64,000 nt of DNA from Phycisphaerae bacterium (GTDB lineage: Bacteria; Planctomycetota; Phycisphaerae; SM23-33), in the NCBI GenBank assembly GCA_030745875.1, contig JASLNT010000039.1, forward strand, positions 1 through 64,000. Direction: 5' to 3'. Position numbers and translations under genes: made by a program. The notes beneath the pieces were generated by a model. It saw nothing but the letters and a program-made list of their open reading frames with translations. It did no database searches and was not told the origin of the DNA. Below, piece by piece: positions 30,387 to 31,406 of this stretch (positions within the stretch are counted from its first letter, which is position 1; each line of letters opens with the position of its first letter).

Positions 30387-30920
30387 CTACGGGGGGCTTG
30401 GGGCACCGCGCTGTTGGGCGGAGTTCATCTGTTCATTGCTAGCGTAAATATCTTCGTAGTTTTCGTCCGGGCCGCCGAGTTCTTTCACCACCTGGGTTTT
30501 CAGGTCTTCAGACAGTTCGGTCAGGCTGTTGTACAAGGCGATCGGGTGCAGCGGTTTGGTTTCGTTTTCGTCGTCGGCGGGCGGTTTGGGCGGGTGCTTG
30601 GCGGATTGCTCGGGCAGGGCGAGCATGAACGTTTTCAGCAGGAACTCGCGACATTTGCGCGCGGTCTCACCATCGCCTTCGAGGGCGACTTTGATGTGCT
30701 TTGTCAGGATGGACTTCATCCACTTGGCGGCCATCCTAACTGTTTGCTGGCGGTAACCTTCTACTGTGGCGGCGATTTTGCGCTGGAGGTCGGGGCGTGA
30801 ATGGTTGTTTGCGATCGACCAGACCGTGCGTCGCGATACTCCGGCGCGGGCTGCGATTTCGGAATGGGAAACGTCGCCGGCGGCGATTAGTTCGACGAGT
30901 AGGTCTTCATCGTAGGACAT
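30387..30920 (-). CDS. HTH DNA-binding protein resembling phage terminase small subunits
   Basis: SHSEIAARAGVSRRTVWSIANNHSRPDLQRKIAATVEGYRQQTVRMAAKWM: N-terminal HTH plus helical region; C-terminal disordered. Confidence 0.55.
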   Translation of the reverse strand: MSYDEDLLVELIAAGDVSHSEIAARAGVSRRTVWSIANNHSRPDLQRKIAATVEGYRQQTVRMAAKWMKSILTKHIKVALEGDGETARKCREFLLKTFMLALPEQSAKHPPKPPADDENETKPLHPIALYNSLTELSEDLKTQVVKELGGPDENYEDIYASNEQMNSAQQRGAPSPP

Positions 30921-30930
30921 GCGGTAACCT

Positions 30931-30942
30931 CGGGTTTCAGGT
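30931..30942. repeat. 12-bp direct repeat copy 1
   Basis: cgggtttcaggt, identical to 31072-31083. Confidence 0.7.
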
Positions 30943-30978
30943 TTTGGGTTCTTGGGGTGTGCGATAACGACAACGACG

Positions 30979-31035
30979 TCGCGACTTCGTCGCGAATAGG
31001 TCGACTCGGGCGTCGATCGCTAAACGGGGTGTCGA
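30979..31035. repeat. Left arm of about 57-bp imperfect inverted repeat
   Basis: TCGCGACTTCGTCGCGAATAGGTCGACTCGGGCGTCGATCGCTAAACGGGGTGTCGA; 50 positions match the reverse complement of 31349-31406 by hand alignment. Confidence 0.9.
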
Positions 31036-31071
31036 GACATCAACAGCGGAATCAGCAACACGTTCGATCTT

Positions 31072-31083
31072 CGGGTTTCAGGT
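31072..31083. repeat. 12-bp direct repeat copy 2
   Basis: cgggtttcaggt, identical to 30931-30942. Confidence 0.7.
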
Positions 31084-31348
31084 GCTCGTTCCACTAGAAC
31101 CTGGAACGTGAAACAGGGTCCCTTCCTCTTCCATGAACATACTTACTGGCGAATGGGGGGTGGTTTTGGTCACCCCGCGAAAAACTTTTTTGTCCAGAGG
31201 AAATGTGAATCATGCAACAGTATGTACGACAAGTTGTTACGCGATTCGATCGCAAGAAAGAATTTTCAATTTCGACCAACAAAATTTCGAAAAATCTTTT
31301 CGCGCGCAACGAAGACAAGAATGTGTCAAGCGAATATCAAACAAGTAA

Positions 31349-31406
31349 TCGACACTCCGTTTAGCTCATCGACGCCCGAATCGACCTCGTCACGACGAAG
31401 TCGTGA
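31349..31406. repeat. Right arm of imperfect inverted repeat
   Basis: Reverse complement TCACGACTTCGTCGTGACGAGGTCGATTCGGGCGTCGATGAGCTAAACGGAGTGTCGA. Confidence 0.9.

What the first reader, a model, noticed from the sequence alone, without database searches (positions are those of the whole stretch)
30387..31406. Structured 428-bp non-coding element bounded by about 57-bp inverted repeats, upstream of an HTH/terminase-small-like gene
Seen directly: 30979-31035 and the reverse complement of 31349-31406 align at 50 positions (7 mismatches, 1 gap). They bracket a roughly 313-bp AT-rich core in an otherwise GC-rich window. The element sits directly upstream of the minus-strand HTH gene 30387-30920. 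Inference: a non-autonomous or domesticated mobile unit, or a DNA-binding protein plus cognate structured site (pac/cos-like logic if the protein really is terminase-small derived), or a long structured leader of that gene.
Basis: partly seen in the sequence, partly recalled or inferred. Interest (0 to 1): 0.82.

Follow-up and report, generated by a model that had tools for sequence, protein, structure and literature searches.

The report
Dispersed phage small-terminase gene with site
The odd palindromic stretch is the control region of a phage DNA-packaging gene (the small terminase subunit) that sits, without the rest of any phage, in several copies around a planctomycete genome, and it carries what may be the packaging start signal, so it could be a very small device that redirects phage packaging to host DNA.

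Summary
The inverted repeat is real (50 of 58 columns; score 48 against a shuffle maximum of 30), but it is not the boundary of anything. It lies inside a ~1.1-kb unit (window ~30454-31480) present at least six times in this genome at 87-91% identity in unrelated surroundings. The arms are two of at least 25 copies of a REP-like two-hairpin repeat that also occurs alone; sister species keep the AT-rich core without them. The 'HTH gene' belongs to a terminase small subunit (TerS) family: relatives lie directly upstream of terminase large subunit (TerL) and portal genes in prophages of the same bacterial family and in a viral contig, and the predicted fold best matches phage TerS-type 2ao9. Most copies are solo: 4 here, up to 7 in a relative, with no TerL or portal beside them. 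In three genomes holding both, solo terS genes and the prophage terS-terL operon share a 60-170-nt upstream block (best z 10-14, controls at most 1.2). The four solo genes here are under purifying selection (dN/dS 0.06-0.19). Best reading: a dispersed terS plus cis-site module; that the site is a pac/cos-like packaging start is inferred, not shown. How it spreads and which TerL it serves are unknown.

The parts
30387..30920 (-). terS-like gene, 177 aa: N-terminal HTH, long antiparallel helical hairpin, short C-terminal helices; codons after ~155 differ from the other copies
   Evidence: ORF; TerS family by position upstream of TerL, predicted structure and fold match; weak phrog_2538 terminase small subunit hit E=0.0012
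30454..31480 (-). extent of the dispersed repeat unit shared with C107, C30 and C18 (C65 and C67 are cut by contig ends)
30979..31035 (+). inner arm of the inverted repeat: REP-like repeat with two hairpins
31349..31406 (-). outer arm: second, inverted copy of the same REP-like repeat
31041..31348 (-). AT-rich conserved core, candidate TerS-associated cis site; kept without arms in C78, C84, C103 and sister species G001
31274..31299 (-). most conserved block of the core, AAAGATTTTnnnAAATTTTGTTGGTC, also in viral contig L218
31208..31246 (-). short inverted repeat AATCnCGTAA...TTACGnGATT (31237-31246 with 31208-31217), partly covarying
31138..31150 (-). GCCAGTAAGTATG motif; all 7 exact copies in this genome lie in terS units; AGTAAGTATG is also upstream of the G002 terS-terL operon
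31459..31476 (-). distal end of the unit, TTCACAATTGGTTCACAA, also a dispersed short repeat in the genome

Best explanation
The locus is one copy of a dispersed ~1.1-kb module: a phage-type small terminase gene (terS) plus the conserved non-coding region that precedes terS in the prophage terS-terL operons of related bacteria. Shown: the copy number, the terS family, the shared cis block, purifying selection, and that the palindromic arms are REP-like repeats lying inside the unit. Inferred: TerS binds the AT-rich core as a pac/cos-like packaging start, so that when a prophage or infecting phage supplies TerL and capsids, packaging can begin at the module and carry the flanking chromosome, in the manner of SaPI TerS/pac redirection but without an island around it. 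Not known: which TerL it serves and how the module was copied to new places.
For: Six copies at 87-91% identity with unrelated left flanks. terS family members sit directly upstream of TerL in G002, G007, G022, G028, G037, G038 and viral contig L219 (TerL by phrog_5653/10250 and portal by phrog_145). The model is N-terminal HTH plus helical hairpin plus C-terminal helices; the best PDB fold is 2ao9, phBC6A51 (probability 0.99), and several named 'terminase small subunit' entries are among the BFVD matches. Solo and operon copies of one genome share an upstream block: G002 z 10.3 and 7.8, G007 z 14.2 and 4.4, G022 z 12.1 and 4.1; cross-genome controls at most 1.2. Among the loci searched, no TerL or portal lies beside solo copies. 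The four copies here have dN/dS 0.06-0.19. About 60 core columns are invariant between species. Cis-only copies exist, e.g. G002:C316 and L218. No sigma70-type promoter match in the region. SaPIs with their own TerS and pac sites are an established precedent (PMC10690885).
Against: No binding or packaging data. No TerL or portal was found in G000 (89% complete) or G001, so no helper is known there. The same data fit an operator or promoter. In G028 none of five solo copies shares a clear block with its operon (best z 3.9), and four of the six G007 solos tested do not (one of them had only 190 nt of upstream sequence). Foldseek E-values are not significant (0.05 for 2ao9).
Confidence: 0.45

Rival explanations
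1. Domesticated autoregulator: solo terS genes became transcription factors, and the upstream block is their promoter and operator, shared with the prophage because TerS once controlled that operon.
For: The HTH matches regulator profiles as well as terminases; purifying selection; the block lies 5' of the gene and holds an inverted repeat and repeated TTGACA.
Against: No sigma70-type promoter; exact GCCAGTAAGTATG in G000 occurs only at its own units, so no visible regulon; cis-only copies exist beside no terS; the helical-hairpin and C-terminal TerS parts are kept.
Confidence: 0.25
2. Neutral or selfish repeat: the terS unit was copied by unrelated machinery (a transposase acting in trans on the TTCACAATTGGTTCACAA end, or recombination between REP-like repeats); its phage origin has no current role.
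For: The distal end is shared with a dispersed short repeat, 39 sites in G000; in G002 the module's distal block belongs to a ~235-bp MITE-like family; units break contigs and decayed copies exist (C78, C84).
Against: dN/dS 0.06-0.19 with intact frames; core conserved between species; cis block shared with the prophage operon.
Confidence: 0.2
3. Phage interference: solo TerS copies poison or titrate the TerS-TerL complex of incoming phage.
For: Multicopy, patchy, intact; SaPIs couple terS with an interference protein (PMC10690885).
Against: A decoy would not need a full cis site in each copy; no defence genes were noticed beside the copies, though this was not searched systematically.
Confidence: 0.1

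Closest known systems
SaPI/PICI satellites with their own TerS and pac site
   Same: A chromosomal terS outside a complete phage, probably with its own recognition site
   Different: No integrase, replication or capsid-redirecting gene; ~1.1 kb; several copies per genome; packaging not shown
terS-terL operons of tailed prophages (pac or cos near terS)
   Same: Same gene family and a shared upstream block
   Different: No TerL, portal or capsid genes; dispersed
PICMI minimalist phage satellites
   Same: Very small phage-dependent elements
   Different: PICMIs excise and replicate, and no terS was found in them (PMC10803314); here terS is the only gene
GTAG/CGTC REP repeats and BIMEs
   Same: Dispersed intergenic hairpin repeats, often as inverted pairs
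   Different: Longer (~57 bp, two hairpins), no GTAG tag seen, not beside the Y1 transposase genes here (PMC3733652)

Membership tests
Terminase small subunit (TerS) | Gene directly upstream of TerL in packaging operons | tested here: met
   For the family: G002:C375, G007:C303, G022:C14, G028:C54, G037:C404, G038:C239, L219. The window copy itself has no TerL.
Terminase small subunit (TerS) | N-terminal HTH, helical oligomerisation core, C-terminal TerL-contact segment | tested here: met
   AlphaFold2 model, pLDDT about 90 for residues 1-90; C-terminal L.ELS..LK motif shared with operon TerS
Terminase small subunit (TerS) | Fold or profile match to known TerS | tested here: inconclusive
   2ao9 top with probability 0.99 but E=0.05; phrog_2538 E=0.0012 for the window protein, 3.5e-5 for the G007 operon copy
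Terminase small subunit (TerS) | Binds pac/cos DNA and TerL | not testable with these tools
   needs biochemistry
PICI/SaPI phage satellite | Own integrase and attachment sites | tested here: not met
   Unit is one gene plus non-coding DNA; no target duplications seen
PICI/SaPI phage satellite | terS with cognate pac site | tested here: inconclusive
   terS present; site inferred from conservation only
PICI/SaPI phage satellite | Helper-induced excision and packaging | not testable with these tools
   no culture or virion data
RAYT-linked REP (arms) | Same repeats flank a RAYT/Y1 transposase gene | tested here: not met
   8 Y1_Tnp loci in G000; only one weak 22-nt hit beside one of them
RAYT-linked REP (arms) | Dispersed hairpin repeat with conserved pairing | tested here: met
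   27 aligned copies; 2 of 12 pairs change on both sides and stay paired
Transposon/MITE bounded by the 57-bp inverted repeats | Homology between copies ends at the repeats | tested here: not met
   Homology extends past both arms

The most novel reading that the evidence does not exclude
A one-gene phage parasite: dispersed terS-plus-site modules that hijack a helper's TerL, making the host chromosome beside each copy a programmed start point for packaging and transfer.
Probability: 0.3. Interest if true: 0.85.

Novelty: new variant of a known kind. Interest (0 to 1): 0.6.

Why it matters
Known satellites that redirect packaging carry terS inside an island with an integrase and regulators. 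A terS-plus-site module repeated several times in one chromosome would be a smaller form and would give these bacteria built-in start points for transduction. It also gives paired protein and site material for testing how TerS and its site co-evolve: each genome has its own version, shared between prophage and solo copies. No paper describing such solo terS modules turned up in the open-access searches made, which do not cover subscription journals or preprints.

Tried and rejected
Rfam over the whole window: no match. RAYT link of the arms: none beyond one weak hit. A first neighbour scan missed the terS-terL operons because overlapping antisense ORFs were picked; corrected. Core as structured RNA: weak covariation only. 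tblastn of the protein against 50,697 phage records: no match. G022:C71 and G033:C75 looked like conserved synteny, but they are 99.4% identical over 3.4 kb between MAGs of different genera, so contamination or recent transfer; not counted. C78 as a prophage remnant: its small downstream ORFs did not match the prophage cluster genes. Target-site duplications: none seen.

Full report
OBSERVATION. The inverted repeat is present at the stated coordinates and well beyond chance (score 48; 200 shuffles 18.0 +- 3.7, maximum 30). The stretch between is AT-richer than its surroundings. No tRNA, tmRNA or Rfam family is in the window.

IT IS A DISPERSED UNIT. A search of the window's own genome (G000, 6.2 Mb, 131 contigs) finds six copies of the non-coding part at 87-91% identity (C39 = window, C65, C30, C18, C107, C67). 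Four carry the gene; C65 and C67 are cut by contig ends at the inner edge. The left flanks are unrelated and homology starts abruptly at ~31480 with TTCACAATTGGTTCACAA. On the gene side the window copy departs from the others at ~30454, about codon 155; C30 and C18 stay alike beyond their stop codon, so the right end is not uniform. No target duplication was seen. The unit is therefore larger than 30979-31406, and the arms are internal.

THE ARMS. Each is a ~57-bp repeat with two hairpins; 27 copies were aligned, about 15 of them outside the units, and 2 of 12 pairs show changes on both sides with pairing kept. They resemble REP/BIME repeats (PMC3733652) but are longer, and are not beside the eight Y1 transposase genes, apart from one weak 22-nt hit. 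The core occurs without arms at C78 and in sister species G001. In sister species G002 the two solo copies have other inverted repeats, 48-50 nt and non-homologous, just upstream of the site; the repeat of one of them also occurs elsewhere in that genome, where I noticed no terS beside it (sequence). Why palindromes gather here is unexplained.

THE GENE. Pfam gives only sub-threshold HTH matches and PHROGs a weak terminase small subunit hit. Context settles the family. In viral contig L219 a relative is followed after 6 nt by a TerL (phrog_5653/10250) and then a portal (phrog_145, E=3e-30). Searching that TerL in 41 genomes finds essentially one locus per genome, and in G002, G007, G022, G037 and G038 the ORF upstream belongs to this family; G028:C54 shows the same order. 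The AlphaFold2 model has an N-terminal HTH, a long antiparallel helical hairpin and C-terminal helices. Foldseek puts 2ao9 (phage phBC6A51 protein) first with probability 0.99 but E=0.05, and lists several named terminase small subunits among viral matches. I conclude that the family is TerS; the operon context is the strongest argument.

SOLO COPIES. The family is patchy: 26 of 300 genomes of the class match, but only 11 with E below 1e-9 (one of these, G033, may be contamination). Copies per genome reach eight. Apart from one operon copy, where there is one, they lie among unrelated neighbours, and TerL and portal searches found no second locus beside them. The four G000 genes differ by dS 0.21-0.31 and dN 0.017-0.047 (dN/dS 0.06-0.19), so they have been under purifying selection, though part of that could have acted in a source element.

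THE CIS SITE. The core has about 60 invariant columns across G000 and G001 copies, no conserved reading frame that I noticed, and only weak RNA covariation. Exact GCCAGTAAGTATG occurs seven times in G000, always in these units. In genomes holding both a terS-terL operon and solo genes I compared the 800 nt upstream: G002 z=10.3 and 7.8; G007 z=14.2 and 4.4, four others not above 1.4; G022 z=12.1 and 4.1; G028 none above 3.9; ten cross-genome controls at most 1.2. So prophage operon and solo modules share a genome-specific block in three of four genomes. Copies of the site without terS also exist (G002:C316; viral contig L218, in whose whole record no terS was found).

MECHANISM. TerS recognises packaging sites and recruits TerL (PMC7947584), and pac or cos sites usually lie in or just upstream of terS (established knowledge, not looked up here). 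A conserved AT-rich region upstream of terS, copied with terS, and sometimes without it, fits a packaging site. SaPIs with their own TerS redirect helper packaging to their own pac site (PMC10690885). By analogy these modules may redirect a helper's packaging to the chromosome beside them. This step is inferred. A promoter/operator role is the main rival; the region has no sigma70-type match, but other promoter types are not excluded. No TerL or portal was found in G000 or G001, so a helper is not known there.

COMPARED WITH WHAT IS KNOWN. It works, on the best reading, like SaPI terS/pac, but it is not a PICI member: no integrase, no attachment sites, one gene. Searches of open-access papers found no description of such modules.

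Noticed in passing
window 31459-31476; G000, G001, G002 genome-wide: TTCACAATTGGTTCACA, sometimes as 11-bp tandem units, is dispersed: 39, 10 and 24 sites against 0 in the reversed-pattern control. In G002 it opens a ~235-bp MITE-like family with CATGTTTACA/TGTAAACATG ends.
   Followed up: partly
L092:1219-1398 and L104:5377-5636: Two G002 solo terS copies have different, non-homologous 48-50 nt inverted repeats just upstream of the conserved site; why palindromes gather there is unexplained.
   Followed up: partly
L218:5669-7850: A viral contig carries the conserved core without terS, between a tmRNA gene and a group II intron reverse transcriptase.
   Followed up: partly
L252, L256, L258, L259, L263: In several relatives the TerL-like gene is preceded by a P-loop ATPase-like ORF (family F1) and no portal homologue was detected nearby; possibly another kind of element.
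   Followed up: no
L121 (G017:C110) and L097 (G028:C46): ORFs with several tandem copies of the terS-type HTH: four segments in one 412-aa frame, two in a 347-aa frame.
   Followed up: no
L108 and L116: G022:C71 and G033:C75, from different genera, are 99.4% identical over 3.4 kb: MAG contamination or recent transfer.
   Followed up: partly
L026 and L103 (G000:C78): Armless core followed by what looks like a truncated terS start and small ORFs; none matched the prophage cluster genes, and the one tried against PHROGs had no hit.
   Followed up: partly
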